Assembly: GCF_002795805.1 (NCBI RefSeq)
Contig: NZ_CP018799.1
Location: 551,001 to 615,000, forward strand
DNA length: 64,000 nt
Reading direction: 5' to 3'
Source: Mariprofundus aestuarium
GTDB lineage: Bacteria; Pseudomonadota; Zetaproteobacteria; Mariprofundales; Mariprofundaceae
Part shown: positions 1-34,130 of the stretch, in pieces
How positions within the stretch are numbered: position 1 is the first letter of the stretch
Layout of the letters: each line of letters begins with the position of its first letter
Notes under the pieces: model-generated
What the model saw: the letters and a program-made list of their open reading frames with translations, nothing else
Told to the model about the DNA's origin: nothing
Database searches by the model: none
Translations under genes and position numbers: made by a program

Positions 1-235
1 TCTCTGCTGAAATCCGGGAGAAGTGGAAGGGGGGATCGCATGAGGCATCGGCATCGATGAAGAGGATCAGTTCGCGGTTCACAAGATCGGTGACATACTC
101 CACCTGCAGCTGCATATCATGCTGGCACTCGATATCGGAAAAGCCGTCCTTTTGGACAGACTCAACCAGTTCCGGCCCCAGCGCGTCATCGCCGCGGCCG
201 GGGTTACCGTAACCTAGGATCAGTAGTTTAGGCAT
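1..235 (-). CDS. hoxW: Hydrogenase maturation protease HoxW, N-terminal part (partial)
   Basis: The gene runs off the left edge, leaving about 78 N-terminal residues. It begins MPKLLILGYGNPGRGDDALG, which is the glycine- and aspartate-rich opening of the HyaD/HoxW/HycI family of nickel-dependent endopeptidases. The acidic residue in GNPGRGDD and the Asp in the later LILFIDAD segment match the positions that sense nickel in this family. By family knowledge it removes the C-terminal peptide of the hydrogenase large subunit after nickel is inserted. It starts 2 bases after the hoxH stop (TGAGCATG), so the two are translationally coupled. The assignment to HoxW rather than another protease rests on hoxH being directly upstream. 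Confidence 0.88.
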   Translation of the reverse strand, partial: MPKLLILGYGNPGRGDDALGPELVESVQKDGFSDIECQHDMQLQVEYVTDLVNRELILFIDADASCDPPFHFSRISAE

Positions 236-237
236 GC

Positions 238-1707
238 TCAAACTGTGCGTTTGATAGCACCACTTGATGCTTTTTCAATGTGATCGACAGTTTCACCATC
301 GGCACTGATCAGCTCCACCTCAAGTGGCATCTTGCCAAGCGCATGTGTTGCACATGAGAGGCATGGATCGTAGGCGCGGATTGCCACCTCAAGGTGATTG
401 AGAAGCCCCTCGGTGATCTCGTTGCCGTCGAGATACTCGTTGGCTACCGAGCGCACCGATTCATTCATAGCCTGATTGTTGCTCGTGGTTGATACGATCA
501 GGTTGGCCTTCTTGATCGTGCCATCCTCATTGACCTTGTAGTGGTGGAAGAGTGTGCCGCGCGGTGCTTCGATCACGCCGATGCCCTCCTCACGTTTTTC
601 ACCCTTCACGACCAGATCGCTGCCAAGGATCTCCGGATCAAGCAGCAGGTCTCGGATCGCTTCAGCAGAGTGAAGCACCTCGATCATGCGCGCCCAGTGA
701 TAGGCAAGCGTATCGTGAACGTAACCGCCATTACCGAATGCCTTGAAGCGCTGGCGCGCACTTTCTGCCATCGGTGTAGAGATGAAGTCGCAGCTGTTAA
801 TGCGTGCAAGCGGACCAACACGGTACCAGCCATCATCACGACCGAGTTCCGTCAGGTAGGGGAACTTCATGTAGCTCCACGAACGAACCTCTTCGCGAAT
901 GATGTTGTAGTAACCGCGATAATCGAACTGGTCGAATATCTTGCTGCCATCTGGACGGCTGGCGCGCAGGCCACCGTGATAGAGCTCCAGTTCGCCTTTG
1001 CCGCCAACCATGCTCAGGTAGTTGCTGTTGAGGCGGCCAAAGCCGTGATTCTCAGGATGTTCGGTATGAATCTTCTCATTGAGGTCAACGGCATCCTGGG
1101 ACCAGGCCAGAACATCGTTGATATCGCCCAGCAGGCGGTCTCGTTCAGCAATGGTAAGTCCCTTGTTCACGCCACCGGGAACCGTGGCAGCGCCATGCAC
1201 GCGTTTGCCGGAGATCACCTCGATCACCTGCTGACCATACTTGCGCAGCCTTACACCTTTCAGCGCCAGATCCGGGTAGTCCTCAATCACACCAACGATA
1301 TTGCGGTGCTCAAGATTGGAGCCGAAACCGAACAGCAGGTCGGGTGAGGAGAGGTGGAAGAAGTGCAGTGCATGAGACTGCATGGTCTGTCCGAAGTGAA
1401 GCAGCTTGCGCAGCTTGGTTGCCGTTGGCGTCAGTTCATCCACACCAACCAGTTGGTCAACCGCCTTGGCCGCAGCTAGGTGGTGGGAGACCGGGCAGAT
1501 ACCGCAGAGGCGCTGCACGAAGTAGGGCACCTCCCAGTAGGGACGGCCCTGAATGAACTTCTCAAAGCCGCGAAATTCGACGATATGAAAACGCGCTTCA
1601 CGCACGTGGTTCGCATCATCCAGCAGCAGTGTGATTTTGCCATGTCCTTCAACGCGGGTAACCGGATCGACAGCGACGCGGCGCAGGTTTGCTCTGTTCT
1701 GTTCCAT
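238..1707 (-). CDS. hoxH: NAD-reducing [NiFe] hydrogenase large subunit HoxH
   Basis: Catalytic subunit (489 aa) of a cytoplasmic bidirectional hydrogenase that binds the NiFe(CN)2CO centre. The N-terminal motif RVEGHGKI is followed by RLCGICPVSHHLA, which supplies two cysteine ligands. DPCLSCATH near the C terminus supplies the other two. The 34 residues after that His (starting ALGKMPLEVE) look like the extension removed by the HoxW protease. I chose ATG 1707 because GGAG lies 7 bases before it; ATG 1719, overlapping the hoxY stop, is the alternative. The partners HoxF, HoxU and HoxY directly upstream point to group 3d. The family reaction is H2 + NAD+ to NADH + H+. Confidence 0.96.
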   Translation of the reverse strand: MEQNRANLRRVAVDPVTRVEGHGKITLLLDDANHVREARFHIVEFRGFEKFIQGRPYWEVPYFVQRLCGICPVSHHLAAAKAVDQLVGVDELTPTATKLRKLLHFGQTMQSHALHFFHLSSPDLLFGFGSNLEHRNIVGVIEDYPDLALKGVRLRKYGQQVIEVISGKRVHGAATVPGGVNKGLTIAERDRLLGDINDVLAWSQDAVDLNEKIHTEHPENHGFGRLNSNYLSMVGGKGELELYHGGLRASRPDGSKIFDQFDYRGYYNIIREEVRSWSYMKFPYLTELGRDDGWYRVGPLARINSCDFISTPMAESARQRFKAFGNGGYVHDTLAYHWARMIEVLHSAEAIRDLLLDPEILGSDLVVKGEKREEGIGVIEAPRGTLFHHYKVNEDGTIKKANLIVSTTSNNQAMNESVRSVANEYLDGNEITEGLLNHLEVAIRAYDPCLSCATHALGKMPLEVELISADGETVDHIEKASSGAIKRTV

Positions 1708-3021: not shown

Positions 3022-4751
3022 AGATGCGCCTCCGCATCATCACGGTGTGTGAGTTGTCGAGCCTCTTCCAGAGATGCGTCCAGATTGAATTCTGGTTCCA
3101 TCTCCTGATGCAGTAGCCGCGCTTCAAAGAGCTCAGGGAAATGTTTCAGGCCGTCGCGAATCGGATTGGGTGCTGTTACGCCAAGTCCGCAGTGAGAGCG
3201 CCGCGATACCAGTGCAGCAGTAGCTTTCAGTTCATCAAGATCATGAGCCGTGCCGTGGCCGCTACAGACCTTATCCATGCCGTTCTTCAGCAGTGTCGTA
3301 CCAACCCTGCAGGGGGTGCAGAAACCGCAGCTTTCGTGGGCAAAGAAGTTGGTGAAATTGTGGATGATCTCCAACAGGTCACGCGAGCTATCAAAGATCA
3401 TGAAGGAGCCGCCGGTGGCGAGATCCTCAAAGGCGATGTGGTGATCAAACTTGCTTGGCCCGATCAGTGAGCCGGATGGGCCGCCGATCTGAACGGCTTG
3501 CGTATTCTCTGCACCGCACTGGTTGAGGATATCCTGGATGGTGATGCCAAACGGATATTCATAGATGCCCGGTTTCGCACAGTCGCCAGAGACCGAGAGG
3601 ATCTTGGTGCCGCGGGACTGCCAGGTGCCGGCGCCGCGGAACCAGCGCTCGCCATGGATAACGATGCCTGCCGCAGCAGCCAGCGTTTCCACATTGTTAA
3701 CCACGGTAGGTTTGCCCATATATCCGCTGGTCACAGGGAATGGCGGACGGATACGCGGATTGCCGCACTTCTCTTCCAGTGATTCGATCAGCGCCGACTC
3801 TTCACCGCAGATATATGCTCCCGCGCCGACGACAATGGCGATATCGAAATCAAAACCATCAATACCGAGGATGGAGGAGCCGAGCAGGCCGACTTCTCGT
3901 CGCGTTGCAAGTGCAGCTTCAAGCGACTCGAGCAGGTAACGGTATTCGCCGCGCAGGTAAATATAACCCTGTTTTGCATTGATGATGCGGGCGCAGAGGG
4001 CCATGCCCTCGAAAACCGCATCGGCATAAGAGGTCAGAAGCACCCGATCCTTGAATGTGCCCGGTTCGCCTTCATCTGCATTGCAGATCACATAGCGGCT
4101 CTCACCCTCTGCCTCGCGGCAGAATTGCCACTTCTGGGCCGTGCTGAAACCTGCACCGCCACGACCCCTGAGGTCGGAGAAGCGGATCTTCTCAAGTGCG
4201 GCATCGGCACCTTCCGCCTCAACTACCCTGAGTGCAGCACCGGACTCAAGCGGCTCTTGCAGCAGCAGGTCAGCCCGGTGGATATGATCATCGATTTTGA
4301 ACCATTCGGCAGGCCATGCTTCCAGTGCGGTTTCTGCCTCTATGAGTTCGGCGATTTTGCCAATGCGCTCGCTATCGAGCGAATGCAGCGGCAGGCCGTT
4401 GATCAGCAGCGAGGCGCCGTGGTCACACATGCCGATACAGGATGCCTCGCCGATGCTGACTAACCCGTCACCGCGGGTCTCTCCGGCGTTGATGCCCAGC
4501 TTTTCACAGAGCGCCTGCTGCAGGGAGAGGTCTCCGCAACTGGTACAGGTGCTGAAGAGGAGGTCAAAGCGGCCGCGCGGGTTGCGGTGGAAGAAGGAGT
4601 AGAACTCCGTCACCGCCTCCACTTGTGCTCTCGGCAGGTTCAGGCGCGAGGCGATATCGCAGATCGCCTGGTCTGAGACAAAGCGATGCTGTTGCTGATG
4701 CGCATGCAGCGCGTGCAGCAGGTGTTCGGAAGGTTTTGGGTTCATAGTCAT
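3018..4751 (-). CDS. hoxF: Hydrogenase diaphorase subunit HoxF (NAD- and FMN-binding)
   Basis: At 577 aa this is the NADH-oxidoreductase subunit, a natural fusion of NuoE-like and NuoF-like parts. The N-terminal third has a thioredoxin-like [2Fe-2S] pattern (CTSC, later CIGMCDHG). The remainder has the NAD/FMN region (GRGGAGFSTAQKWQ, then CNADEGEPGTFKDR and GAGAYICGEESALIESLEEK) and a [4Fe-4S] site at SCGFCTPCRVGT. An in-frame TAG three codons upstream rules out a longer start. ATG 4751 has no clear Shine-Dalgarno, and ATG 4745 is also possible. A consensus TATAAT ends 9 bases upstream, so this gene may have its own promoter with almost no leader. Confidence 0.95.
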   Translation of the reverse strand: MTMNPKPSEHLLHALHAHQQQHRFVSDQAICDIASRLNLPRAQVEAVTEFYSFFHRNPRGRFDLLFSTCTSCGDLSLQQALCEKLGINAGETRGDGLVSIGEASCIGMCDHGASLLINGLPLHSLDSERIGKIAELIEAETALEAWPAEWFKIDDHIHRADLLLQEPLESGAALRVVEAEGADAALEKIRFSDLRGRGGAGFSTAQKWQFCREAEGESRYVICNADEGEPGTFKDRVLLTSYADAVFEGMALCARIINAKQGYIYLRGEYRYLLESLEAALATRREVGLLGSSILGIDGFDFDIAIVVGAGAYICGEESALIESLEEKCGNPRIRPPFPVTSGYMGKPTVVNNVETLAAAAGIVIHGERWFRGAGTWQSRGTKILSVSGDCAKPGIYEYPFGITIQDILNQCGAENTQAVQIGGPSGSLIGPSKFDHHIAFEDLATGGSFMIFDSSRDLLEIIHNFTNFFAHESCGFCTPCRVGTTLLKNGMDKVCSGHGTAHDLDELKATAALVSRRSHCGLGVTAPNPIRDGLKHFPELFEARLLHQEMEPEFNLDASLEEARQLTHRDDAEAHL

Positions 4752-4759
4752 AGGATTCT

Positions 4760-4765
4760 ATTATA
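4760..4765 (-). promoter_or_regulatory. Possible -10 element in front of hoxF
   Basis: On the minus strand the perfect hexamer TATAAT occupies this position, giving an expected start site about 2 bases before the hoxF ATG. I see no convincing -35 hexamer at 16-18 bases. It could make hoxFUYHW expressible independently of the hyp genes. Confidence 0.4.
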
Positions 4766-4770
4766 GCGGA

Positions 4771-4797
4771 TTAGACGGTGTTTTGCCTGAAGGGCAT
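4771..4797 (-). CDS. Possible 8-residue leader peptide ahead of hoxF
   Basis: A mini reading frame, MPFRQNTV then TAA, is preceded by a strong GAGGAG Shine-Dalgarno with a 4-base gap. It ends 19 bases before the hoxF ATG, and hoxF itself lacks a good ribosome site. It may load ribosomes that re-initiate at hoxF. No regulatory amino-acid run is visible. The strong SD is the only evidence that it is translated. Confidence 0.3.
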   Translation of the reverse strand: MPFRQNTV

Positions 4798-4853
4798 TGT
4801 ACTCCTCTGTAAATGTGGTGTGAAGAGATAAACGACATGTTTTTGTGCAGAAG

Positions 4854-5558
4854 TCACACACTGTTGGCAATTCCATACATGATACTGATGCCGAGCAGGG
4901 CTGTTACGGAGCCGATACCCAGTTGAAGATATTGATGAAGTCCGGCAAAGCGGTTGGCGGAGTGGCGCAGCGGTAACATGATGATCATCGACAACAGCGC
5001 CATGCCGGCAATCGAGCCAATACCAAACAGGCTTATATAGATTAAACCCATGGCGAAGGAGTGAACCGACTGCAGGGTTAATACAATAAGCGCTGCCGAA
5101 CCGGCCATGCCATGCATGATACCGATAAGCAGGGCGCGCAGTGGAAAGTGTTCCGGGTGAACATGCTCATGGATGCTGTGGCTGGATGATGCCTCTTCGG
5201 CCTCATGGGTATGGGCATGCCAATGCAGGGTACCATCTGCATGGCGGTGAAAGTGGAAATGCAGAGAGTCACGCATAAAGCGCCGGACAACATCGATGCC
5301 CAGAACAACCAGCATGATGCCGACGATGAACTCCAGTGTCAGTGCGATCTGTTCTGGAATCATCTTATCCACCAGCAAAACAGCCGAACCGAAGATAAAC
5401 AGTGTGAGGGTATGGCCCAGTCCCCACACTGAACCCAGTCGAACCGATTCGCGCGTCGATGGTGATCTGCTCACCAGCGAGGCCACGGCTGCGACATGGT
5501 CCGACTCCATGGCATGGCGGATACCCAGCAGGAAGCCTATAAGCAGTGTTTCAATCAT
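4854..5558 (-). CDS. Nickel/cobalt permease (NiCoT / UreH-like)
   Basis: A 234-aa membrane protein with about six hydrophobic segments. The first helix carries RHAMESDH, the HX4DH signature of nickel/cobalt permeases (H15, D20, H21). A His-rich cytoplasmic or periplasmic loop lies near residues 100-138 and probably binds metal. It is inserted between hypF and hoxF, and its ATG overlaps the hypF stop by 4 bases. It most likely supplies nickel for HoxH. Whether it should be called HoxN or UreH-like cannot be settled here. Substrate preference (Ni versus Co) is inferred from the neighbours. Confidence 0.85.
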   Translation of the reverse strand: MIETLLIGFLLGIRHAMESDHVAAVASLVSRSPSTRESVRLGSVWGLGHTLTLFIFGSAVLLVDKMIPEQIALTLEFIVGIMLVVLGIDVVRRFMRDSLHFHFHRHADGTLHWHAHTHEAEEASSSHSIHEHVHPEHFPLRALLIGIMHGMAGSAALIVLTLQSVHSFAMGLIYISLFGIGSIAGMALLSMIIMLPLRHSANRFAGLHQYLQLGIGSVTALLGISIMYGIANSV

Positions 5559-6733
5559 ATCGTTCTTGCCTTCTGTGCCAAAGCTACGGTTGCCTGGCCG
5601 AGGCAGATGCCTGCATCATTGGCCGGAACCCGGCGGTGTTGCAGCACTGTCAGGCCTGCCCGCTGCAGTTCCAGCGGCAGGTGGGTGCTGATCAACTGGT
5701 TCTGGAATACACCACCGGAAAGGGCAACCGAATTCACCCCGTGTTTGTTGCAGAGGGAGATAGCTGTTTCGCTCAGGGCATGAATCAGGGTGCGGTGGAA
5801 GCGTGCCGCAATGGTTTCTGTTTCAGCACCTTTCTGGATATCAGACAGCAATGCCAGCCACATCGGATGCCACTCCAACTGCAAGCAGCTGTTCGCTTCA
5901 CTTATGCCGTAGTCGTAGCGGCTCGTTTCCTGTTCAAAACATGCGCTTGCAGCCTGCTCCAGCGCAATGGCTGCCTGTGCCTCAAAGGCGACCTTCTCAC
6001 GGTGAAATCCCAGAGCAGCAGCTACGCCATCAAAAAGGCGACCGCAGGATGAGGCCAGTGGTGAATTTAAACCTGATGTCACCATGGCGTGCATCGTGGC
6101 TACCGGTTTTTTTTCCAGAAAGTCTACGATATCAGTGTCGCTGAATGTTGTGTTTACCTCATCCCAGATAGGCAGAAGCTGGGCCAGTGTATTGCGCCAC
6201 GGCTCATGTATCGCAGCGGCTCCGCCTATCATGGCAATTGGTTTAAAATGGCTAAGCCTTTGAAAACCCTGATAATCGGCCAGCAGCATCTCGCCGCCCC
6301 AGATCGTGCCATCCTCACCAAAGCCGAGGCCATCAAGTGCGAGCCCGAGCACGGGTTTTGAGTCCAACGGCAGGCCATTGTCGGCCATGACTGAGGCGAT
6401 ATGGGCGTAGTGATGCTGAACCTGTAGAAGCGGCAGGCCCAGTTCGGCGGCAAGTTTCTGGCCATATTGCGATGAGAGGTAATCGGGGTGTTTATCAATG
6501 ACGACCTGTTCCGGCTTGCAGTAAGGATCGGCCAACAGGCTCTCCACGGAAGCAGAGAAGTGGCGGTAGACGTCCTCCTGTTCAAGATCGCCAATCGGTC
6601 TGCTCAGATGAGCAGTGCCATCACGGATCAGGCAGATGCTGCTTTTCAGCTCTCCGCCCAGCGCCAGAGTTTGTGGTGCAGTCTTAAAGCTTTCGGGAAG
6701 ATTGATGCTGATTGTTAAAGGCGACTCGGACAT
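5555..6733 (-). CDS. hypF: Short HypF: C-terminal carbamoyltransferase (Kae1-like) part only
   Basis: This 392-aa protein matches only the C-terminal half of HypF, which makes the cyanide ligand precursor by moving a carbamoyl group to the HypE cysteine. Visible Kae1-like features are HHYAH (residues 107-111), LALDGLGFGEDG and WGGEM (134 onward), and SGGVFQNQ (about 339). The usual N-terminal acylphosphatase, zinc-finger and YrdC-like domains (roughly 350 residues) are absent. No room exists for them, because hypE ends one base before this ATG (TGATATG). An upstream ATG at 6793 would only add residues overlapping hypE. Short HypF forms are reported in other hydrogenase systems, so this may be real rather than decayed. 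Confidence 0.88.
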   Translation of the reverse strand: MSESPLTISINLPESFKTAPQTLALGGELKSSICLIRDGTAHLSRPIGDLEQEDVYRHFSASVESLLADPYCKPEQVVIDKHPDYLSSQYGQKLAAELGLPLLQVQHHYAHIASVMADNGLPLDSKPVLGLALDGLGFGEDGTIWGGEMLLADYQGFQRLSHFKPIAMIGGAAAIHEPWRNTLAQLLPIWDEVNTTFSDTDIVDFLEKKPVATMHAMVTSGLNSPLASSCGRLFDGVAAALGFHREKVAFEAQAAIALEQAASACFEQETSRYDYGISEANSCLQLEWHPMWLALLSDIQKGAETETIAARFHRTLIHALSETAISLCNKHGVNSVALSGGVFQNQLISTHLPLELQRAGLTVLQHRRVPANDAGICLGQATVALAQKARTI

Positions 6734-6734
6734 A

Positions 6735-7760
6735 TCAGCAGATGCGTGGCAGCTGCTCACCAGCCAGCCAGTCAACCACACGACTGCCGCCAAAGGCAGT
6801 TTTCATCACCACCATCTGTTGTGCATCCTCGCAAACGTTGCCGATGATGGCAGCGTTTTGTCCCAATGGATGTTTATGCATGGCGGCCAGCAGCTGCCCT
6901 GCATCTTCGGCCGGCACGATGCAGACCAGCTTGCCTTCGTTGGCAATATAGAGTGGATCAAGTCCCAGTAGTTCACAGGCTCCCTTGACCTCGGCTTTGA
7001 TCGGGATGGATGTCTCCTGAATAGAGATGCCCACATTGGACTGGCGTGCCAGCTCATTGAGTGTTGTGGCAAGGCCGCCACGGGTGGGGTCGCGCAGGCA
7101 ACGGATAGCCGGTGCGATGGCAATCATTTCTGCCACCAGCGTGTGCAGGGCGGCGGAGTCCGATTCAATGGTGGTGCCGAACTGGAGTCCTTCGCGGCTG
7201 GAGAGGATGGCAATGCCGTGATCGCCAATCGAACCGCTGACAATGATTGCATCGCCCGGCTTAGCCAAATCCCCTGAAATGTTGATGCCATCAGGTACGA
7301 TGCCGACGCCGGTAGTGGTGATAAAAACACCGTCACCCTTACCACGTTCAACCACCTTGGTGTCCCCCGTAACAACCGGTACCCCTGCATCTATGCTCGC
7401 CTTTGCCATGCTGATTACGATGCGCTCCAGATCTGCGAGCGGAAATCCCTCTTCAAGAATAAATGAGGCGGAGAGGTAGAGAGGTGTTGCACCGGACATG
7501 GCGACATCATTCACGGTGCCGTGTATCGAGAGCGAACCGATATCACCACCGGGAAAGAAGAGGGGGGTAATCACATGGCCGTCGGTGCTGATCACCATAC
7601 GTCCTGCCGGGATACTGAAGAGAGCCTGATCGTTGCCCTGGTTCAGAAGTTCATTGTCGAAATGGCGGACAAAGATCTCTTCGATCAGTGTGGCTGAAGC
7701 CCTGCCGCCGCTGCCGTGGCCCATCTCAATCAGGCCGTTTTTGATATCGAGTTTACTCAT
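6735..7760 (-). CDS. hypE: Hydrogenase maturation protein HypE
   Basis: A 341-aa AIR-synthase/ThiL-fold enzyme that dehydrates a thiocarboxamide on its C-terminal cysteine to thiocyanate, the cyanide source for the NiFe site. It starts MSKLDIKNGLIEMGHGSGG, contains the ATP-binding loop GDTKVVERG, and ends in PRIC with the expected terminal Cys. I used ATG 7760, which overlaps the hypD stop as ATGA, instead of the far upstream ATG at 7928 that would run through hypD. HypC/D upstream and HypF downstream complete the pathway. Confidence 0.96.
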   Translation of the reverse strand: MSKLDIKNGLIEMGHGSGGRASATLIEEIFVRHFDNELLNQGNDQALFSIPAGRMVISTDGHVITPLFFPGGDIGSLSIHGTVNDVAMSGATPLYLSASFILEEGFPLADLERIVISMAKASIDAGVPVVTGDTKVVERGKGDGVFITTTGVGIVPDGINISGDLAKPGDAIIVSGSIGDHGIAILSSREGLQFGTTIESDSAALHTLVAEMIAIAPAIRCLRDPTRGGLATTLNELARQSNVGISIQETSIPIKAEVKGACELLGLDPLYIANEGKLVCIVPAEDAGQLLAAMHKHPLGQNAAIIGNVCEDAQQMVVMKTAFGGSRVVDWLAGEQLPRIC

Positions 7761-8875
7761 GCCTTTGACTCGGCAGCGCGATATCTGCCGTAACTGTAAT
7801 ATGCTGCGCATGCCCCCTCTGATGACACCATGCAGGCACCTTTCGGATCTTCCGGGGTGCAGGCTGTGCCGAAGAGTTTGCACTCGTCCGGATTGTTCAT
7901 GCCGCGCAGTACGGCGGGGCAGATGCACCCCTTGATATCGGCTGTTGCGATCGCTTGCATTCCGAACCGCTTCTCGGCATCGAAGTCGGCAAATTCACTT
8001 CTGATCTGAACTGCACTCTCCGGTAAAACGCCCAGTCCGCGCCACTCAAACAGGGGCCGCTGCTCAAACACCTCAGCCATCAGGCTCTGTGCTTTTTTGT
8101 TGCCACCCTTGCTTACAGCCCGCGTGTACTGGTTCTCTACCGAGGCTTCTCCTGCATTGATCTGGCGCACCAGCATTAGTACCGACTGGATTACATCCAG
8201 TGGTTCAAAACCAGCAATCACCAGCGGTACCCGGTATTTGTCGCAGCAATCAGCATAAGCCTGACTTCCGATAATCGTGCTGACATGTGAGGGGCCGAGA
8301 ATGCCGTCGATCTTCGCTTCACCCGCACTCAGGATATGCATCATCGCAGGTGGTGTTTCGACGTGGTTGCAGAAGACGCTGAAGTTGGTCAACTGCATGG
8401 CGTTGGCGATTTTCAGTACGGCGGCGGTTGGCGGTGTGGTGGTTTCAAAACCGATGGCGAAAAAGACTACCTGTTTTTCACGATTGGCCTGTGCAATAGC
8501 CAGCGCATCGGTAGCCGAGTAGACCATGCGGATATCACCGCCGCGCGCCTTGGCTTTCTGCAGGGAGTCGCGCTTGCCTGCCGGCACCCGCATCAAGTCC
8601 GCATAGGTGCAGAGGATGACATCGTTCTCTTCAACCAGCTTGATGGCCGCCTCAATTCGGCCAGCCGGCAATACGCAGACCGGGCAGCCGGGGCCGTGGA
8701 TGAAGCGGACATTGTCGGGCATCAGGTCAACGATACCGAAACGGAAGATCGCATGGGTATGACCGCCGCAGAACTCCATCAGCCGGTAATTGCGATCAGG
8801 TTTGGCCTCCTGCCGGATCAGTCTGGCAAGCAGTTGGGCGACGTCGCCGTCGCGATATTCATCAACGAATTTCAT
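7757..8875 (-). CDS. hypD: Hydrogenase maturation protein HypD
   Basis: A 372-aa [4Fe-4S] scaffold protein on which, with HypC, the Fe(CN)2CO unit is built. The signature FCGGHTHAI includes Cys36, and GPGCPVCVLP gives Cys64 and Cys67. The C-terminal cluster ligands appear in IKGCICPAVLRG and the KLFGTACTPEDPKGACMVS stretch. Length is normal for the family. Its start overlaps the hypC stop by 4 bases, and its stop overlaps hypE by 3, a tightly coupled order hypC-hypD-hypE. Confidence 0.97.
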   Translation of the reverse strand: MKFVDEYRDGDVAQLLARLIRQEAKPDRNYRLMEFCGGHTHAIFRFGIVDLMPDNVRFIHGPGCPVCVLPAGRIEAAIKLVEENDVILCTYADLMRVPAGKRDSLQKAKARGGDIRMVYSATDALAIAQANREKQVVFFAIGFETTTPPTAAVLKIANAMQLTNFSVFCNHVETPPAMMHILSAGEAKIDGILGPSHVSTIIGSQAYADCCDKYRVPLVIAGFEPLDVIQSVLMLVRQINAGEASVENQYTRAVSKGGNKKAQSLMAEVFEQRPLFEWRGLGVLPESAVQIRSEFADFDAEKRFGMQAIATADIKGCICPAVLRGMNNPDECKLFGTACTPEDPKGACMVSSEGACAAYYSYGRYRAAESKA

Positions 8876-9099
8876 GCCTCTGCATCCATGGCCTTTAGCT
8901 CATCGAAGAGCTTCAGTGTTTTTGCGGCTTCAACCGGATCGATGCGCTCGAGTGCGAAACCGACATGTATCAGCACATAATCACCAACGGCGATCTCATC
9001 GAGTAAGACGGTTGATGTCTCTTTGCGAATGCCATCAAGATCGACGACGGCACTATCACCATTGAGTTCAACAACGAGGGCAGGTACAGCAAGGCACAT
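8872..9099 (-). CDS. hypC: Hydrogenase assembly chaperone HypC
   Basis: A 75-aa chaperone with the invariant start MCLAVP, whose Cys2 binds iron and contacts the large-subunit precursor. The later GDYVLIHVGFALERID stretch is typical of HypC/HupF. It lies 3 bases after the hypB stop. Only one hypC-like gene is present in the window, in line with a single hydrogenase. Confidence 0.96.
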   Translation of the reverse strand: MCLAVPALVVELNGDSAVVDLDGIRKETSTVLLDEIAVGDYVLIHVGFALERIDPVEAAKTLKLFDELKAMDAEA

Positions 9100-9102
9100 A
9101 AG

Positions 9103-9939
9103 TTAGTCCATCCCGATCAGTGACAGCTCACGTGTGGCCCTGAGCCAGGCAAACCAGTTTTCCATGCCTTCGCCACTGCTGGCAGAGAGCTGCAGGATCT
9201 TGATGCCGGGATTTACCCGGCGTGCATATGCGATGCAGCTCTTCAGGTCAAAATCGAGGTAAGGAAGCAGGTCGACTTTATTCAGGATCATCAGGTCTGC
9301 GGCGTGGAACATGTCCGGGTATTTCAATGGTTTATCCTCACCCTCAGTTACCGAAAGGATCACCACCTTGTGCGCCTCGCCGAGATCAAAGGCGGCGGGG
9401 CATACCAGATTGCCGACATTCTCAATGAACAGCAGGCTCTTATCTTCCGGAGTCAGGTCGCCAATGGCGTGACCGACCATGTGGCCATCGAGATGGCAGC
9501 CTTTGCCTGTATTGATCTGTACGGCTTTCACTCCCGTAGCGCGGATGCGTTCGGCATCGTTGGCTGTCTGTTGGTCGCCCTCGATTACCGAGATCGGGAA
9601 AGCGCTGTTCAGTGCTTCAATGGTTTTCGTCAGCAGCGTGGTTTTACCGGCACCGGGGCTGGAGACAAGATTCAGCGCCAGGATGCCGCGCTCGGCAAAG
9701 TGGCGGCGGTTGGCGGCTGCATAACCGTTGTTTTTGGCAAGAATATTCTGCTCAATACTGATCAGGCGCGCTTGAGAGAGGCCTGCAACATGTACGCCTG
9801 CTTCACCTTTGCTGTAGTCGTGGTCATGGCTATGTGCATGACTGTGATTATTATGCTTATGGTCGTGATGATGGTCGTGGTCATGAGGATGCCCATGATC
9901 ATGTTTATCCTCTTCACCGCATCCGCATACAGTACACAT
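9103..9939 (-). CDS. hypB: Hydrogenase nickel-incorporation GTPase HypB
   Basis: A 278-aa GTPase that helps HypA insert nickel into HoxH. The N terminus is [10 protein letters not shown], giving the CxxCGC high-affinity metal site. A stretch of about 35 residues follows in which His and Asp predominate, a nickel-storage tail. The P-loop is [11 protein letters not shown], and NKVDLLPY supplies the guanine-recognition NKxD. The start codon shares one base with the hypA stop (TAATG). The His-rich tail suggests buffering of scarce nickel, which fits the adjacent permease. Confidence 0.97.
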
Positions 9940-10280
9940 TATTCGACCTCCATATCTTTGATGCGCATGGCATCACCGGCTCTGATCTCCAGTGGGTAGT
10001 GTTCACACAGGGGGCAGGCATCGTATCGCTGTCCGATCTCTACCTCTTTTTGGCACGCTACGCACCAGCCGCTACCGGGGATATGGTCAATCTCCAGCCT
10101 TGCGCCATCGGCAATGGTTCCTTTGCTGGCCGCATCAAAGGCGAAGCGCATCGCTTCAGGCTCAACACACGAGAGCCTGCCGATCTCCAGCCGGATGCTT
10201 TTCACCTTGTTGTAATTCTGAATAGAGGCTTGTTCTTCGGCTATTTCGATGATGCCTTCACACAGTGACATCTCATGCAT
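9939..10280 (-). CDS. hypA: Hydrogenase nickel metallochaperone HypA
   Basis: A 113-aa nickel chaperone. It starts MHEMSLCEG, with the nickel-binding His2 typical of the family. Two CxxC pairs (CVAC and CPLC) form the structural zinc site near the C terminus. I chose ATG 10280 rather than ATG 10304 because MHEM must be N-terminal for nickel binding, and TGGAG lies just upstream. It is the first gene of the hyp-hox run and sits 16-20 bases after a predicted transcription start. Confidence 0.96.
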
Positions 10281-10302
10281 GGGTAACTCCAGAGGGGCAG
10301 GC

Positions 10303-10330
10303 ATTCTAAACTATCCAGAATGCTCTGCAA
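10303..10330 (-). promoter_or_regulatory. Sigma70-type promoter of the hyp-hox operon
   Basis: On the minus strand TTGCAG (10330-10325) and TAGAAT (10308-10303) are separated by 16 bases, with the start expected near 10296. I saw no sigma54 -24/-12 element, though many uptake hydrogenase operons use one. The remainder of 10331-10524 shows nothing else clear. Confidence 0.6.
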
Positions 10331-10524
10331 GGCGTGATAGTCATGGCGAAGAAATGAGCAATGGGTGTGGCTCTTGGATAAGGGGGCAGGCCTCTTTTTT
10401 TGCTTACCGGCCGTTTTTCGACCATCGAGGTTCGGCCAACTTCAGACATTCAGTTTAGTTCAGCCTAAAAATATTTGCATAGCCATGAGGCATCAGTAAT
10501 CGCAACTAATTCAAGCCATTATGG

Positions 10525-10992
10525 CTACTTATTATTGGGACACGACCATTTATTGAGATTGAATAAAATTCTGTCATCATGAATTCTACCTTCAGCATTA
10601 TCCAAGCCACAATTCTTATCACATTGAAGAAACAAGCATATATGGTGTTTTAATGAATCAGGATTAAATGGTTTACATAAATACATACAGGCTAAATTTT
10701 TATACTTATGTTCAATCTCAGGTGACCCAGTAACAACCACGAATTTCTGGAATGGATTAAGCTGGCGGACTTGATGCATGAAATCATATCCATTCATTTC
10801 AGGCATACGTACATCACTAATAATAGCAAGCGGAGAGGAGTAGTCCGGCTCATTCATATATCCAAGATAATGCGTTGGGCTACTAAACAGCAAAGTCCGA
10901 CATCCAAAATCATGGATAATCTCAGAAAATATTTCCATTATCACTTCATCATCATCGACAATGTGGACCACACTTCTTTCAAGGTTAACCAT
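10525..10992 (-). CDS. Stand-alone response-regulator receiver protein
   Basis: A single receiver domain of 155 aa with no output domain. The acidic pocket is VDDDE, the phospho-acceptor Asp lies in ISDVRMPEMNGYDF, the Thr switch in VVVTGSPE and the Lys in LCKPFNP. After residue 125 there is a polar tail without a recognizable domain. ATG 10992 was chosen because GGGAGGG precedes it; the longer form from 11082 adds 30 unlikely residues. No histidine kinase is adjacent. The gene and its flanks are clearly more AT-rich than their neighbours, which suggests acquisition by transfer. Its partner is unknown. Confidence 0.85.
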   Translation of the reverse strand: MVNLERSVVHIVDDDEVIMEIFSEIIHDFGCRTLLFSSPTHYLGYMNEPDYSSPLAIISDVRMPEMNGYDFMHQVRQLNPFQKFVVVTGSPEIEHKYKNLACMYLCKPFNPDSLKHHICLFLQCDKNCGLDNAEGRIHDDRILFNLNKWSCPNNK

Positions 10993-11197
10993 TGGACATC
11001 CCTCCCAATGGACGTCCATTTCCAAAATTATTCTTCCGTGAAGGTGAAAACACATCATACGCGCAAACTGCCAGTCAAACAATTAACACAAATGGAAGAG
11101 GTTCTTTTGCGTTGATAGGTTTTGCAGTAAATACATATTCTTATTTGAATGTCCGAAGTTGGCGGTGATCTCAACTGCCTCACCATTATTTGGAACG

Positions 11198-14100
11198 TTA
11201 TCTTAACCCTTGCCAGAGCGTTTCCAGTTTTTTCAGGGATACGGGAACGCTGGTTTTCAGCTCCTGTGCGAAGAGGGATACGCGCAGCTCTTCCAGCAGC
11301 CAGCGGAACTCATCGATGGCTTCGGTGCTCTCCTTCAGCTTTTGCAACACCTCGCGACGGGCTGCGTATTGTATCCAGAGTCGCTCTAGGGTTGCGGTGT
11401 GCTGGCTGTCCTGTTTGAGGTTACGGCCAGCCTTGCCCAAGCGCATTTTCGCGGCTTCGATAAAGCGGGGGTAGTGGGCAAGCCATCGGGCAGGCGTAGT
11501 TGCAACAAAACCGGGATAAATCAGCCTGCTTATCTGCTGCCTGATATCATCGCTGACAGGTTTGAGCTGCGCTGCACGAATGGCATCAAGGGCAGTGATC
11601 AGCTCCGTGTGGGCGGTGAGTGCGGCGGTGATATGATCAGCCAGCGTGGATGCCTGCGCAACGATGCGCACACGCCCCTGATCAAGACGCTGGGTAAATG
11701 CAGCCTGACTCCTCGGTAGCGGCTCGGCCATGAATACCTCATCAAAGGCCGCCTGGATCAGTTCATCCTTGAGAGTGGCCGGATCCCCAATCAGGGCATA
11801 ACGCAGTGTCAGCTTCTGCAGTTGCGGGGTATTTTTTTTGAGCAGCTCCACCTGCTGGTGCAAATGTAGCATAAACAGCCTTCTTAAGCCCATACGCATC
11901 ACCTGCGCCGCCTCGTGGCAGCTCTCAAAGATGCGGATGGCAACACTCTGACCGTCATCCTGAAGGGCTGGAAAGAGCTGCAGCTGCAGCCGTTGCCGGG
12001 TGGTGGTAACCGACTCGGGAAGATCGCTGAACTCCTCCCAGCGGGTAATGCCGATTCGCTCCAGTTTCTGTACCGTATCAATAGCCTTCAGGCTTTCGCG
12101 GCTGCTTGTCGCGTGTTTGGCCTGAAGCTCCCTGAGATCACTGCCACTATCCAGCGTTTTTCCGCTTTCACCGGTAACCCTGAATTTCATGCTCAGGTGG
12201 GAGGGAATGGATTCACCATTCCAGTCGTCACGATGCGGTTTGACACCGGTCATGCGCTCAAGCTGGCGCGAAAAAGAGTCCAGCAGCTCGCCTTTGCCGA
12301 ACGCCATGCTCTCCATGGCTGCCTGAGCAAACTGCGGTGCGGGCACGAAGTTGCGCCGCATCGCCTTGGGCAGGCTTTTGATCAGCAGGATCAGCTTCTC
12401 GGCCAGCATGCCTGGTACCAGCCACTCAAAACGGGTCGCATCAAGCTGGCCCAGTACTGGCAATGGCACGATCAGTGTCACGCCATCGGCCTTGTGCATT
12501 GGATCAAAGTGATAGCTGAATTTCAGTTTGAGTTTGCCTTCCTGGTAAAAATCGGGAAAGGCATCGTTGTTGATGGCTTTGGCATCACTATGCAGCAGAT
12601 ACTTTCTATCGAGATAGAGCAATCTCGGGTTCTTCTGTTCGACCTCTTTGCGCCACTGCTCAAAAAGTTTGCCGCTATAAACGCCCTCGGGAATGATGTC
12701 ATCGTAGAAATCGAAGGCGACCTGCTCTTCAGCCAGCAGATCACGTCGCCGTGACTTGGCTTCCAGCTTCTCAAGTTCGTTGATCAGGCGCTGGTTATGG
12801 CTGAAAAACTTGCCATGGGTGCGATACTCGAACTGCACCAGTGCATGGCGGATAAACAGTTCACGGGAAACCACAGGATCAACCGGCCCATAGTGGATAA
12901 GGCGCCTGCCGATGATGGGTAGACCATAGAGGCTGACCTTCTCATAGGCGGCGACCTGGGCGCGTTTGAGTGACCAGTGCGGTTCGCTGTAACTCTTTTT
13001 GATCAGATGAGGTGCAAGCTCCTCCAGCCATGCCGGATTGATGGCTGCAGCTGAGCGGCCATAGAGGCGGGTGGTTTCAACAAGCTCGCCGCATAGCACC
13101 CATTTCGGCGGCTTCTTAAACAGGGATGAGCCGGGGAAGATAGAGAACCTGAGGTTGCGTGAACCCATGTAGTTGCGCTTCTCATCATCATAGAGCCCGA
13201 CATGACTTAAAAGGCCGGCCAGCAGGGCGCGGTGAATCGCATCGGGTTTGGCAGCCTCGCTGTTCGGCTTCATCTTCATCTCACGCACGATGGCCAGCAG
13301 TTGCCCGTGCAGGTCATGCCATTCGCGCAGGCGTATATAGGAGAGGAAACGATCATGGCAGAGCTTGCGCAGCTTTGAACGCGAGAGGTGCCGCGCCTGT
13401 TCGTGGTACCAGCTCCACAGCTTCAACCAGCTCAGCAGATCGGATGTGGGGTCGGAAAACAGGCGGTGTTTCTCATCGGCCTGCTGCTGCATATCCATAG
13501 GTCTGGTACGCGGGTCCTGCACCGAGAGGGCAGCGGCGATAATCAGCAGCTCATGCAGCGAGCGCTCGGCATCAGCCTGCAGCAGCATGCGGCCAATGCG
13601 CGGATCGACAGGCAGGCGCACAAGCCTTTTGCCGATGGGGGTAAGCTTCTTCTGGCTATCAACCGCCTGAAGCTCATCCAGCAGCAGGTAACCGTCAGCA
13701 ATCGCCTTCCTCTCCGGCGCATCCATGAACGGATAACTGCTCAGCTCACCCAGGTTAAGGTTGCTCATCTGCAGGATTACGCTGGCTAGGTTGGTACGGC
13801 GAATCTCAGGGTCGGTCTGGGCGGGGCGATTGTTAAAACTCTCCTCCGAGTAGAGGCGAATACAGATGCCTGCGGCAATGCGGCCACAGCGCCCGGCACG
13901 CTGGTTGGCGGAGGCCTGTGAAATGGGCTCAATCGGCAGTCGCTGCACCTTGGTGCGGGCGCTATACCGGCTGATGCGGGCAAGCCCTGAATCGATCACA
14001 AAGCGGATGCCGGGCACAGTCAGCGAGGTTTCGGCTACATTGGTCGCCAGTACGATGCGGCGTCCTTTGTGGGATTGAAAAACCTTGTCCTGCTCAGCCG

Positions 14101-30681: not shown

Positions 30682-31239
30682 GTGCTGGCTGGGGTTGATG
30701 AAGTAGGGCGCGGGCCGCTTGCAGGGCCAGTGGTTACTGCGGCGGTAATTCTTTCGCCGGATGATCCATATCTGGGACAGTATCGCGACTCCAAGAGGGT
30801 GGCCGAAAAGAAGCGATTGAAGCTTTATCACCATATTCGCAAACATGCAGTGGCCTATTCAGTGACACTGGCTTCGATCGAGGAGATCGATGAACTTAAT
30901 ATCCTGCATGCAACGATGCTCTCAATGCGCCGTTCGGTTGACGCTCTCTCCGTTGTCCCCTCAAGGGTGCTGGTTGACGGTAACCGCGTACCAGATTTGG
31001 CTGTGCCTGCAGAGGCCATTGTCGGTGGTGATGATCTGGTTCAGGAGATTGCAGCGGCCTCGATTATCGCCAAGGTGGTTCGGGATCGTTTGATGCAGCG
31101 GCTGGATAGCCGGTTCCCCGGCTACGACTTCTCGAGACACAAAGGGTATGGCACCAAGGTGCATATGGATGCACTCAGTTTGCTTGGCCCCTCTCCGGCA
31201 CATCGCAAATCCTTCGCCCCAATCGCCAAGCTTTTATAA
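30682..31239 (+). CDS. rnhB: Ribonuclease HII
   Basis: A 185-aa nuclease that removes ribonucleotides from DNA. The active-site opening is AGVDEVGRGPLAGPV, with the Asp-Glu pair. The second Asp lies in VLVDGNRVP, and a conserved stretch is EIAAASIIAKVVRD. It starts with GTG two bases after the pheT stop, so it is coupled to pheT. It is slightly shorter at the N terminus than most RnhB proteins. A weak hairpin (31225-31246) overlaps the stop. Confidence 0.93.
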   Translation: MLAGVDEVGRGPLAGPVVTAAVILSPDDPYLGQYRDSKRVAEKKRLKLYHHIRKHAVAYSVTLASIEEIDELNILHATMLSMRRSVDALSVVPSRVLVDGNRVPDLAVPAEAIVGGDDLVQEIAAASIIAKVVRDRLMQRLDSRFPGYDFSRHKGYGTKVHMDALSLLGPSPAHRKSFAPIAKLL

Positions 31240-31242
31240 TCT

Positions 31243-31262
31243 TGGCTATTTGCATTTCAGGG
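31243..31262 (+). repeat. Inverted repeat flanking the intact tnpB element, right copy
   Basis: A 20-base sequence matching 32814-32833 in inverted orientation at 18 of 20 positions, including the unbroken TGGCTATTTGCATT. It begins 4 bases after the rnhB stop. Confidence 0.7.
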
Positions 31263-31287
31263 TTGAATCGCAGTTTTGACTCTGCGT

Positions 31288-31449
31288 TTGAATCCCGCCC
31301 GAATGCGGGTCTACCTCAGCATCGAAGTGCTTTCTGAAGTACGGGTTTAACCGTAACACTTCGACCTGTTCGGCGGTGCCAGCCAAGACACCGTTGCGCC
31401 GTTGAATGAACTCGGTGGCGAGTCTTCCAATGACGGCTTTTCTGTGCGC
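31288..31449 (-). ncRNA. Candidate omega RNA (reRNA) of tnpB copy A
   Basis: In IS605-type elements the guide RNA is made from the tnpB 3' end through the right end, with the guide just beyond it. Here about 160 bases separate the tnpB stop from a hairpin CCCGCATTCGGGCGGG followed by ATTCAA. The predicted guide would start ACGCAGAGTC on the minus strand. This is inferred from position and structure only. A second hairpin plus ATTCAA lies 25 bases further on, so the scaffold end is ambiguous. Confidence 0.45.
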
Positions 31450-32790
31450 TTAAAGCCACCATTTCGGCCACGAACGTCGTGTGAGAATGTTGGAGGCCGC
31501 ATTTGTGTCGGCACAATCTGTATGGGCGCACCAGCGACACTTGAACGTGTCCCTTGTGCCCCGGTTCTTCAGATCAACGTAACCACACTGGCTACATGTC
31601 TGGCTTGAGTAAGCCGCGTTGACCTCTATGTGTTCGATCCCGAACTCCTGCTCCAGCGCGTTGAGCTTGCGCTCAACGGCTGCCCGGCCGCAGTTGCGGA
31701 TCAGTCGGTTCATACGCCGACTGAGATCGGGGTGCATGAAATTCAATCGCTCCACTACGATCATGGACGGGCGCTCTGTTTTCACCACAGCGTTCAAGGC
31801 TTCGTTGATCGACCGATCGATGGTCGTCCGCATCCGGTGGATCATATCACGATACCGCTTCGAACGAGACAGCCTGAACTTTCGCTTCTGGCATTGGGTC
31901 TGAATGTGTTGAATGCGCTTGTCGAGCTTGACCATGTAATCGATCAGATCGACGCCGTATCTGTTACCAGAATCTGAGACAAACACATTCCGAAGCCCGA
32001 AATCGAGTGCTACGGTTTTATCCAGTGCATCACAGGCTTTTGTGTACGCATCGACCGAATCGCCGTAATTAATCGCCTTGATAAAGTCGACTTCCAGCCT
32101 GTGCTTGTGTTGATTGAATCGGATACGGTAGAGCCCCTTGGTTTTGCCATCGTGCCGGTCTGCATACGAGTTTGTTTCAACCGGCATGGATACACCCTTT
32201 CCGCGATGGCTAACGCGTAACCATGTCTCGAACTCACGCGATGTGCCGGCCTGTTGAACCTTGCAGTTGCGCTGGTCTAGGCATATCACATTTTCCCGAA
32301 ATTCTGGAATGCATCTCCTGCGACAGTGGTGCCAGAACCGATCCTCGAGCCATGCGGCATGCTCTGCCGGCAACCCTTCAGAGCTGAGCCACTTGCGGCT
32401 CTTGTTAATGTAGTAGAGTTGCTTCAGCAGGTCGGCATCCGGTGGGTTATCACCAGCCCGGATGGCGTTGATCTCGATCCTGATGTCGTTGACCACGTTG
32501 CCAACCTTGGATACTGAAGCCGGGTAGACGCTGTTCGCATACGCTTGCTGGGTCACAGTGGTGGTTACCAGGTCTTTGAGATCAGGATGAACCGATGACA
32601 TCAGTGGCATCGGCCTGTCACCTTTATCCTGCGATGAGAAGAACCTCAACCACTGGGCATCAAGATCAGGAGCAAGCGCATTAGCTACTGCCGCATAATC
32701 ATGAAACAGACCACTGCGAAGCCACTCAGACTTCCCTTTATTCGCCGGCAGCATGTGCCGGTAGCTCCGCATTACGCCACCTTTAGACAT
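31450..32790 (-). CDS. TnpB-like RNA-guided nuclease (IS605 OrfB), intact, unusual N terminus
   Basis: At 446 aa the C-terminal half is clearly TnpB. RuvC residues are Asp263 in ALDFGLRN, Glu347 in IVVERLNF and Asp428 in DCADTNAASNIL. A zinc ribbon (CSQC ... CRWC) lies near 399-421. All three catalytic acids are present, so nuclease activity is plausible. The first 200 residues lack the usual YKFRLYP-type start and are not recognizable to me. ATG 32790 was chosen because it directly follows the left-end hairpin, as in the neighbouring copy; the frame is open to a TTG at 32826. By family knowledge TnpB cuts DNA next to a short target-adjacent motif. Confidence 0.85.
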   Translation of the reverse strand: MSKGGVMRSYRHMLPANKGKSEWLRSGLFHDYAAVANALAPDLDAQWLRFFSSQDKGDRPMPLMSSVHPDLKDLVTTTVTQQAYANSVYPASVSKVGNVVNDIRIEINAIRAGDNPPDADLLKQLYYINKSRKWLSSEGLPAEHAAWLEDRFWHHCRRRCIPEFRENVICLDQRNCKVQQAGTSREFETWLRVSHRGKGVSMPVETNSYADRHDGKTKGLYRIRFNQHKHRLEVDFIKAINYGDSVDAYTKACDALDKTVALDFGLRNVFVSDSGNRYGVDLIDYMVKLDKRIQHIQTQCQKRKFRLSRSKRYRDMIHRMRTTIDRSINEALNAVVKTERPSMIVVERLNFMHPDLSRRMNRLIRNCGRAAVERKLNALEQEFGIEHIEVNAAYSSQTCSQCGYVDLKNRGTRDTFKCRWCAHTDCADTNAASNILTRRSWPKWWL

Positions 32791-32808
32791 GGTGTACGAG
32801 CGCACACC
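32791..32808 (-). repeat. Left-end hairpin of tnpB copy A
   Basis: GGTGT and ACACC pair around an 8-base loop and touch the ATG. The same arrangement occurs in copy B at 32911-32928. This resembles the imperfect palindromes bound by Y1 TnpA. Confidence 0.6.
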
Positions 32809-32813
32809 TTTAA

Positions 32814-32833
32814 CCTTGGAATGCAAATAGCCA
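32814..32833 (+). repeat. Inverted repeat flanking tnpB copy A, left copy
   Basis: Partner of 31243-31262, 18 of 20 bases identical in inverted orientation. Confidence 0.7.
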
Positions 32834-32910
32834 TAATCTTTTACCTAAGAATCGCGTAACGCCCCTGGGTTCATCCATGGGGATATAAGCGATTGCATTG
32901 GCTTTATTTA

Positions 32911-32928
32911 GGTGTTCGCCCCTACACC
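32911..32928 (+). repeat. Left-end hairpin of tnpB copy B
   Basis: GGTGT and ACACC pair around TTCGCCCCT-type loop bases directly before the ATG, matching the copy A arrangement on the opposite strand. Confidence 0.6.
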
Positions 32929-34130
32929 ATGCGTATCCACAAGGGCTATAAATTCAGGCTAGAGCCAAGCTCCGAGCAGCAATCTGAGATGATTCGTTTC
33001 GCGGGACATAACCGTGCGGTCTGGAACCAATCCCTGCGTATAATCAAAAGTCGGCTGGAGCAAAGACTTCCGATCATGTGGTTCCATGAATTAAACTGGA
33101 GCATGGTCAACCTGTGGGAAAAATCGGACGAAATGCTGTGGTTGAATGAAGCGCCGAGCCAGTCTTTGATTCAAACGCTGAAGCATCTGGATCGCGCTAT
33201 GCGTGATTGTTTCGACAAGAATCAACCCAACAAACGTATGCCTCGTTTCAAAAAAGAAAGGCGAGCATGATTCATTCATCTTTCCGCAAGGATTTGATGT
33301 GGCCGGCAACCGAATCAAGCTTCCAAAACTTGGCTGGATGAAGTTTCGCATGTCTCGGGAACTGGTTGGTACCATGAAATCAGCAACGGTTTCTCGGAAT
33401 GGAAAACACTGGTACGTCTCGATCCTTTGCGAGCAGGAAATAGTTGCTCCGGTCCACGCATCTTCAACTGCAGTCGGCATCGATCGCGGTGTTCATATCA
33501 TGGCTGCCTGCTCGGACGGCAAGGATTATGTGGGTGAAAAGCCTTACCGGAGGCATGAAAAGCGATTGGCCAGAGCGCAACGTCTGCTTGCCCGCAAAAT
33601 AAAGCTTTCAAATAACTGGCACAAACAGAAGGAGAAGGTTCAAGCCATCCACTCAAAGATCGCTAACATTCGTAAAGATGCGCTGCACAAAGCCACCACT
33701 GAAATCAGCAACAACCACGCTATGATTATCATGGAAAAGCTTGGCACATCCCGAATGTCGAAATCTGCGAAAGGAACGATTGAGAAAACGGCGTAAACGT
33801 CAAAGCAAAGTCAGGATTGAACAAGTCCATCCTGGATTCTGGCTGGTCGATGTTTGCGGCGATGCTGGAGTACAAACAGCTCTGGAAAGGCGGTTTTGTT
33901 GAGTATGTGTCAGCCGCCTACACCAGCTAGCGTTGTAGTCAGTGCAACCATGCGGCCAAAGAAAACCGTGTTTCTCAAAGCAAGTTCTGCTGCCAGTCCT
34001 GCGGCCATACGGCCAACGCAGACCGAACGCAGCATATAATATTTTAGCGGCAGGATATGCCGCCTTCGTCTGTGGAGAGGCCGGGTTGCCGACTCCAATG
34101 AAGCAGAAACCTGTGGTTGCAGCGATGTAG
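32929..34130 (+). pseudogene. tnpB (IS605 OrfB) remnant, frameshifted
   Basis: The start MRIHKGYKFRLEPSSEQQ is the classic TnpB N terminus. The reading frame then breaks at least four times: an extra A in the run at 33250-33255; a shift near 33790; TAG at 33928-33930 where AYTSQRCSQC would be expected; and a shift near 34022 just after ANAD. Each piece still reads as TnpB: AVGIDRGVH with the first RuvC Asp, IIMEKLG with the Glu, a zinc ribbon (CSQC, CQSC) and NAAYNILAAGYAA at the end. It is a dead gene that was intact fairly recently. Confidence 0.9.

What the first reader, a model, noticed from the sequence alone, without database searches (positions are those of the whole stretch)
31450..32790. 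TnpB with complete RuvC residues but an unrecognizable N-terminal half
Catalytic Asp263, Glu347, Asp428 and the zinc ribbon are intact, yet residues 1-200 lack the usual YKFRLYP-type start seen in copy B next door. It may define a divergent TnpB branch with a different RNA- or TAM-recognizing lobe.
Basis: partly seen in the sequence, partly recalled or inferred. Interest (0 to 1): 0.6.

Follow-up and report, generated by a model that had tools for sequence, protein, structure and literature searches.

The report
TnpB nuclease riding a DDE transposon
The odd gene is a divergent relative of the RNA-guided DNA cutter TnpB that sits inside a cut-and-paste (DDE-type) transposon, and relatives of it are built into another DDE transposon family, although TnpB has been described as living only in two unrelated transposon families.

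Summary
Window 31450-32790 (-) encodes a 446-aa TnpB with D263, E347, D428 and the zinc ribbon intact, and an N-terminal half that no Pfam or NCBIfam model matches. The "different lobe" does not hold: the predicted model aligns over residues 4-444 with ISDra2 TnpB (Z 18.2), and distant full-length relatives share the N-terminus.

The unexpected part is the carrier. The gene fills a 1,589-bp element (31244-32832) with ~24-bp inverted repeats and an 8-bp target duplication. A same-genus genome has a matching empty site. The same repeats end a 10.7-kb element with an ISL3-family DDE transposase in that relative. The query element has no transposase, and an in-frame TAA cuts off a tail whose remnant stays in frame up to a stop in the terminal repeat.

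Nine relatives form one clade carried by another DDE family, IS1595: transposase and tnpB lie together between inverted repeats, often with 8-bp duplications. Their tnpB 3' ends carry an RNA-level constraint and a covarying fold, the expected guide-RNA signature. 12 of 13 insertions have RTA just outside the duplication, where a TAM would lie.

A 2023 paper states that TnpBs occur only in IS200/605 and IS607. New variant of a known kind; activity untested.

The parts
31244..32832 (-). whole element, 1,589 bp, bounded by terminal inverted repeats (TIRs), carrying only tnpB
   Evidence: the only inverted repeat found at 31200-32900; 21 of 24 outer bases identical; with an 8/8 flank repeat. One of two IR+TSD pairs that pass the script's filter in the 64-kb window (the other is 18/24 with 7/8 and 11.8 kb apart)
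31244..31267 (+). right TIR (tnpB 3' side)
   Evidence: the same TIR at both ends of an ISL3 element in same-genus G015 (L267) and beside an ISL3 transposase in G212 (L269)
32809..32832 (-). left TIR (tnpB 5' side)
31236..31243 (.). target-site duplication copy 1, ATAATCTT (contains the rnhB stop codon, so rnhB stays intact)
   Evidence: single-copy site in G015 (L189)
32833..32840 (.). target-site duplication copy 2, ATAATCTT
31450..32790 (-). divergent TnpB, 446 aa, catalytic D263/E347/D428 and zinc ribbon present
31246..31449 (-). in-frame remnant of the C-terminal tail after TAA 31450-31452, ending at a TAG inside the right TIR
   Evidence: (tblastn of a relative runs through the TAA)
31244..31385 (-). 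putative guide-RNA (reRNA) scaffold at the element's right end, overlapping the frame
   Evidence: fold z -2.84; nested stem 31305-31369 z -2.57; by analogy with relatives that show RNA-level constraint. Inferred, not shown
31224..31243 (-). predicted guide: the duplication plus rnhB-side flank directly after the right end
   Evidence: inference from TnpB biology; no RNA data

Best explanation
A divergent TnpB, from a branch that also occurs with IS607 serine recombinases, is carried here inside a transposase-less element with ISL3-type ends; another part of the branch is built into IS1595 DDE elements. Shown: gene, TIRs, 8-bp duplication, matching empty site, ISL3 transposase between the same TIRs in a relative, IS1595 transposase plus tnpB inside TIRs, RNA-level constraint on tnpB 3' ends in relatives. 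Inferred: the 3' end of the tnpB transcript is cut into a guide RNA whose scaffold ends at the right TIR and whose guide is the flanking DNA (duplication first); the ribonucleoprotein cuts sites that lack the element (TAM about RTA next to the duplicated bases), so that copies lost by cut-and-paste excision are restored by recombination. The resident copy is stranded: no ISL3 or IS1595 transposase was found in the genome, and its C-terminus is truncated, so it may cut but cannot move by itself.
For: Element and duplication; empty site L189. ISL3 link: same TIR pair with duplication TTATTAAG around a DDE_Tnp_ISL3 protein (175 bits) in G015, and a 67%-identical ISL3 transposase beside one such TIR in G212. 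IS1595 link: transposase upstream of tnpB in 9 tree rows forming one clade, 100/99; TGATG overlap in 4 of 8 junctions read; 7 of 13 elements with an 8/8 duplication; PF12762 confirmed for L018 and L029. RNA constraint: four-fold sites 0.53 to 0.72 (IS1595 group), 0.39 to 0.78 (Thermus phages), 0.51 to 0.89 (mycobacteria), p<=0.001; covarying nested stem, 86% paired against at most 48% when slid. TAM-like motif: TA before the duplication in 12 of 13, mirrored on the right in 1 of 13. Fold. No transposase in own genome.
Against: The ISL3 link for tnpB rests on one element. The query does not group with the IS1595 clade in the tree (long branch 1.5-1.6; one clade with it not rejected, p 0.13; with the Thermus/Aquificota rows p 0.65), so the two captures may be separate or wrongly placed. 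In the query the GTA lies one base further out (GGTAA before the duplication). The TA rule could be an IS1595 target preference: I found only two TnpB-less IS1595 elements with clear ends (0 of 2 with TA) plus left edges of three distant copies. One group (Ectothiorhodospiraceae) shows no significant four-fold effect (p 0.25), its rows being too alike. Rfam found no guide RNA. The internal TAA may mark decay.
Confidence: 0.62

Rival explanations
1. Fossil: a once-mobile tnpB cassette that is now a decaying, inactive gene with no current function.
For: In-frame TAA removes a tail kept in relatives; single copy, no ISL3 or IS1595 transposase in the genome; long branch; copy B beside it is a broken TnpB.
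Against: 446 codons open with every RuvC and zinc-ribbon residue intact; codon-position GC pattern of a coding gene, though the tail after the stop keeps it too; the RNA fold at the right end is still better than shuffles (z -2.84).
Confidence: 0.35
2. Ordinary IS607 (serine recombinase) TnpB that by chance lies in a miniature ISL3 element, without any functional tie between nuclease and DDE transposon.
For: Nearest rows by path are IS607-linked Thermus phages; IS607 TnpA next to tnpB in L017, L020, L023, L035, L039, L105.
Against: The tnpB frame spans nearly the whole 1,589-bp element and its original stop lies in the TIR, as in the IS1595 elements; no room for an IS607 TnpA inside; repeated architecture in 9 IS1595 rows.
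Confidence: 0.15
3. Structurally new TnpB with a replaced RNA- or TAM-binding lobe.
For: No sequence model matches residues 1-200; profile-profile alignment stops at column 220.
Against: Predicted fold aligns end to end with ISDra2 TnpB and Cas12f; N-terminus conserved in IS607-linked relatives.
Confidence: 0.05

Closest known systems
IS607-family TnpB (ISXfa1, ISFba1; guided_TnpB, NF038280)
   Same: RuvC-zinc ribbon nuclease, guide RNA at the right end; part of this branch has IS607 TnpA neighbours
   Different: 446 to about 600 aa, relatives with a C-terminal tail, N-terminus beyond the models, below NCBIfam cut-offs for the query, no Rfam guide-RNA hit, and a DDE carrier in the query and the IS1595 clade
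Fanzor1/Fanzor2* in eukaryotic TIR transposons
   Same: RNA-guided TnpB relatives carried by cut-and-paste transposons with TIRs and TSDs (passages of PMC10711439)
   Different: eukaryotic; there the TSD is reported as part of the scaffold; here the 8-bp duplication differs at each site, so it would have to belong to the guide
ISL3-family transposon of same-genus G015 (L267)
   Same: the same terminal repeats, 8-bp duplication
   Different: 10.7 kb, encodes its transposase and type I restriction genes, no TnpB
IS1595-family insertion sequences
   Same: IS1595 transposase, TIRs and 8-bp duplications in the IS1595-linked clade
   Different: carry tnpB as second gene, its stop codon inside the right TIR
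ISDra2 TnpB (8h1j, 8exa) and AsCas12f
   Same: overall fold (Z 18.2 and about 16)
   Different: about 16% identity in the aligned parts

Membership tests
TnpB (RuvC RNA-guided nuclease superfamily) | RuvC D/E/D triad and four-Cys zinc ribbon | tested here: met
   invariant columns in A4; PF07282 E 1.8e-13
TnpB (RuvC RNA-guided nuclease superfamily) | WED-REC-WED-RuvC fold | tested here: met
   predicted model only, pTM 0.49; ISDra2 TnpB Z 18.2 over 4..444
TnpB (RuvC RNA-guided nuclease superfamily) | guide RNA from the right end of the element | tested here: inconclusive
   RNA-level constraint and covariation in relatives; only a fold z-score in the query
TnpB (RuvC RNA-guided nuclease superfamily) | RNA-guided DNA cleavage | not testable with these tools
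   needs biochemistry
IS607 element | serine-recombinase TnpA, no TIR, no target duplication (definition recalled) | tested here: not met
   for the query element: TIR and 8-bp duplication present, no TnpA in it
IS200/IS605 element | Y1 TnpA or subterminal-hairpin ends, no target duplication (definition recalled) | tested here: not met
   TIR and duplication present
ISL3-type element (non-autonomous) | ISL3 TIR and 8-bp duplication | tested here: met
   TIR shared with ISL3-transposase loci L267 and L269; duplication. That ISL3 makes 8-bp duplications is recalled, and seen in L267
ISL3-type element (non-autonomous) | own ISL3 transposase | tested here: not met
   none in the element or the genome: hence non-autonomous
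IS1595-linked tnpB clade | groups with the nine IS1595-linked TnpBs | tested here: inconclusive
   outside in the tree, constraint not rejected, p 0.13
TldR (nuclease-dead TnpB repressor) | lost RuvC catalytic residues (definition recalled) | tested here: not met
   all three present in the query

The most novel reading that the evidence does not exclude
One TnpB lineage has been captured at least twice by bacterial DDE transposons (IS1595 and ISL3) and serves them as an RNA-guided retention nuclease. Its guide begins with the freshly made 8-bp duplication and its TAM (about RTA) lies just outside it, so bacteria parallel what eukaryotic transposons did with Fanzor.
Probability: 0.5. Interest if true: 0.78.

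Novelty: new variant of a known kind. Interest (0 to 1): 0.62.

Why it matters
[quoted passage not shown] These loci are bacterial counter-examples: TnpB as the second gene of IS1595 elements and as sole gene of an ISL3-ended element. They make two things testable. First, whether TnpB helps a cut-and-paste DDE element to persist. Second, how a guide RNA copes with a variable 8-bp target duplication, which leaves a TAM plus eight matching bases at every left junction.

Tried and rejected
Close relatives by peptide patterns: none in genome contigs or viral contigs (and 52 for L029). Rfam: no guide-RNA family.

First idea that the query element itself was IS1595-derived: dropped when its TIRs turned up on an ISL3 element in G015 and the tree did not put it in the IS1595 clade.

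Control for the RTA motif with TnpB-less IS1595 elements: my searches for ends mostly returned noise. In one search, 4 of 30 loci passed a loose filter and only L274 looks genuine. In one search, 2 of 50 loci passed and only L322 looks genuine. In one search, 0 passed. Three G071 left edges were read by eye. The control is too small to exclude a target preference of the transposase.

Of the 13 IS1595-tnpB insertions, 7 have an 8/8 duplication, L030 7/8, L021 6/8 when its end is read with the leading T, and four (L106, L230, L231, L236) none. L230's right flank equals L236's left duplication, which suggests exchange between copies or an assembly join. RNAalifold on the MAFFT alignment of right ends gave only 15 pairs, 3 with changes on both sides; the stronger count uses a structure taken from one member's fold (L241), which favours the unslid version. 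In it the measures 'pairs with a change on both sides' (29/500) and 'further pair types' (50/500) do not clearly beat the shuffles. The 11 rows of that count were chosen from the sequences printed; others there (e.g. L243, L247, L249, L250) were left out and look worse paired by eye. No autonomous ISL3-tnpB element was found.

Full report
What is there. On the minus strand, 31450-32790, an ORF of 446 codons lies between rnhB and the hslU/copy-B side. Its C-terminal half is TnpB/Cas12f-like; the first 250 residues match no Pfam or NCBIfam model. It is single-copy: the other three matches in the 2.54-Mb genome cover only C-terminal parts at 26-51% identity. Of 61 genomes of relatives, 8 (own included) have any match, and outside the own copy none is a full-length relative.

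The N-terminal half. tblastn against plasmids and phages found full-length relatives annotated as zinc ribbon protein or transposase: Thermus phages YS40_Isch and TMA, a Thermus plasmid, Indioceanicola, Salipiger, Mycobacterium, Bifidobacterium. In their alignment the N-terminus is conserved (P..ANxGK, then a long helical stretch), so the start is a diverged version, not a foreign part. The AlphaFold2 model from 13 sequences (pLDDT 78, pTM 0.49) is matched best by Cas12f and TnpB chains in Foldseek and, over residues 4..444, by ISDra2 TnpB at Z 18.2 in VIA-align. By sequence profile only columns 220-441 align with ordinary TnpBs.

The carrier. The gene lies in an element with the marks of DDE transposition: inverted repeats at 31244-31267 and 32809-32832 (21 of 24 bases), 8-bp duplication ATAATCTT on both sides. 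The duplication includes the rnhB stop codon, so rnhB is intact. In same-genus G015 the site after rnhB reads GCCAAGCTTTTATGATTTTTTACC; joining the query's flanks with one duplication gives GCCAAGCTTTTATAATCTTTTACC, 22 of 24 equal. The repeats occur nowhere else in the genome at up to 3 mismatches. Among 150 genomes, 7 had a match at up to 2 mismatches. In G015 two matches bound a 10.7-kb element with duplication TTATTAAG that encodes an ISL3 transposase (PF01610, 175 bits), HsdR, HsdM, HsdS and a KAP NTPase. In G212 a 67%-identical ISL3 transposase lies 140 bp from such a repeat; its other end was not found. The other single matches were not followed beyond reading their flanks. The own genome has no ISL3 and no IS1595 transposase by Pfam search. 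So the query is a transposase-less element with ISL3-type ends.

The reading frame. After WWL the frame meets TAA, but goes on for a further 67 codons to a TAG inside the right repeat, and a relative's tblastn alignment runs through the TAA. In the IS1595 relatives too the tnpB stop codon lies in the right repeat.

Relatives in IS1595 elements. A profile search gave 80 genome and 80 viral loci (the best 80 of 453 and of 195). Partners were sought by BLASTP against seed transposases in all loci then held, and printed for a selection. An IS1595-family transposase lies directly upstream of tnpB in L016, L018, L024, L026, L027, L029, L030, L104, L106, and in L233 from the phylum sample, where 3 of 398 genomes matched. 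The stop of tnpA overlaps the start of tnpB (TGATG) in L016, L027, L029, L104. Some transposases are broken or shortened (L016, L021, L024, L026). In one search (44 rows) the nine IS1595 rows are one clade (100/99); IS607-linked rows fall in other groups; the query is a long branch near the Thermus/Aquificota rows. Holding it with the IS1595 rows is not rejected (p 0.13), nor with the Thermus/Aquificota rows (p 0.65). Copies are multiple in G400 and G404.

Guide-RNA signature. Identity at four-fold sites rises from 0.53 to 0.72 in the last part of IS1595-linked tnpB (four sequences), 0.39 to 0.78 in the two Thermus-phage genes and 0.51 to 0.89 in the two mycobacterial genes (permutation p 0.0001, 0.00075, 0 of 20,000); one pair of near-identical genes shows no effect (p 0.25). 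The right ends of 11 chosen elements fold into similar nested stems with an apical hairpin. Counted on their alignment, 86.2% of cells pair (at most 47.7% when slid) and 11 cells have changes on both sides (5.4 in shuffles, reached in 1 of 500). The query region folds similarly (z -2.57 and -2.84), but its homology to that stem is only by position.

A TAM-like motif. For 13 IS1595-tnpB insertions the bases just outside the left duplication end in TA in 12 and in RTA in 12; the mirrored right flank starts with TA in 1 (ends). The 13 rows include four copies of one species at different sites. If the guide starts at the element's right end, as in known TnpBs (PMC10711439, passages), the TAM of the empty site is exactly there. 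The query has GGTAA, one base off. The control set is too small (see Tried and rejected).

Literature. Searches for TnpB with IS1595, ISL3, DDE transposase and TIR/TSD in the held library listed no paper on a bacterial TnpB in such elements, judged from listings. [quoted passage not shown] PMC11061315 (passages) describes IS607 TnpBs averaging 390 aa. The 2023 PNAS survey of TnpB and Cas12 (known to me by recall) is not held, so a mention there is not excluded.

Verdict. Observation confirmed; the lobe idea is not supported. What is notable is the carrier: TnpB in bacterial DDE transposons, with the signature of a guide RNA. Function is inferred.

Noticed in passing
window 32893-34130 (+): Copy B is an IS200-type TnpB broken by a frameshift near 33270 and further stops: N-terminal and RuvC parts lie in separate frames.
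   Followed up: partly
L267 (same-genus genome G015) 3016-13744: A complete type I restriction-modification set (HsdR, HsdM, HsdS) with a KAP NTPase sits inside a 10.7-kb ISL3 transposon with 8-bp target duplication: a mobile defence cargo.
   Followed up: partly
L015, L020, L017 (Thermus phages and plasmid): The third RuvC Asp reads Gln (NAQVN) in these three TnpBs, so they may be nuclease-impaired, unlike the other five rows of that alignment.
   Followed up: no
L016, L021, L106: IS1595-tnpB elements with internally shortened transposase (L016, L021) or tnpB (L106), showing non-autonomous derivatives.
   Followed up: partly
L240-L250 (genome G404): Nine right ends with different flanks in one metagenome-assembled genome point to recent multiplication of the IS1595-tnpB element.
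   Followed up: partly
L025 2705-2792: A tRNA gene ends about 200 bp upstream of a Persephonella TnpB of this branch that has no recognised transposase beside it.
   Followed up: no
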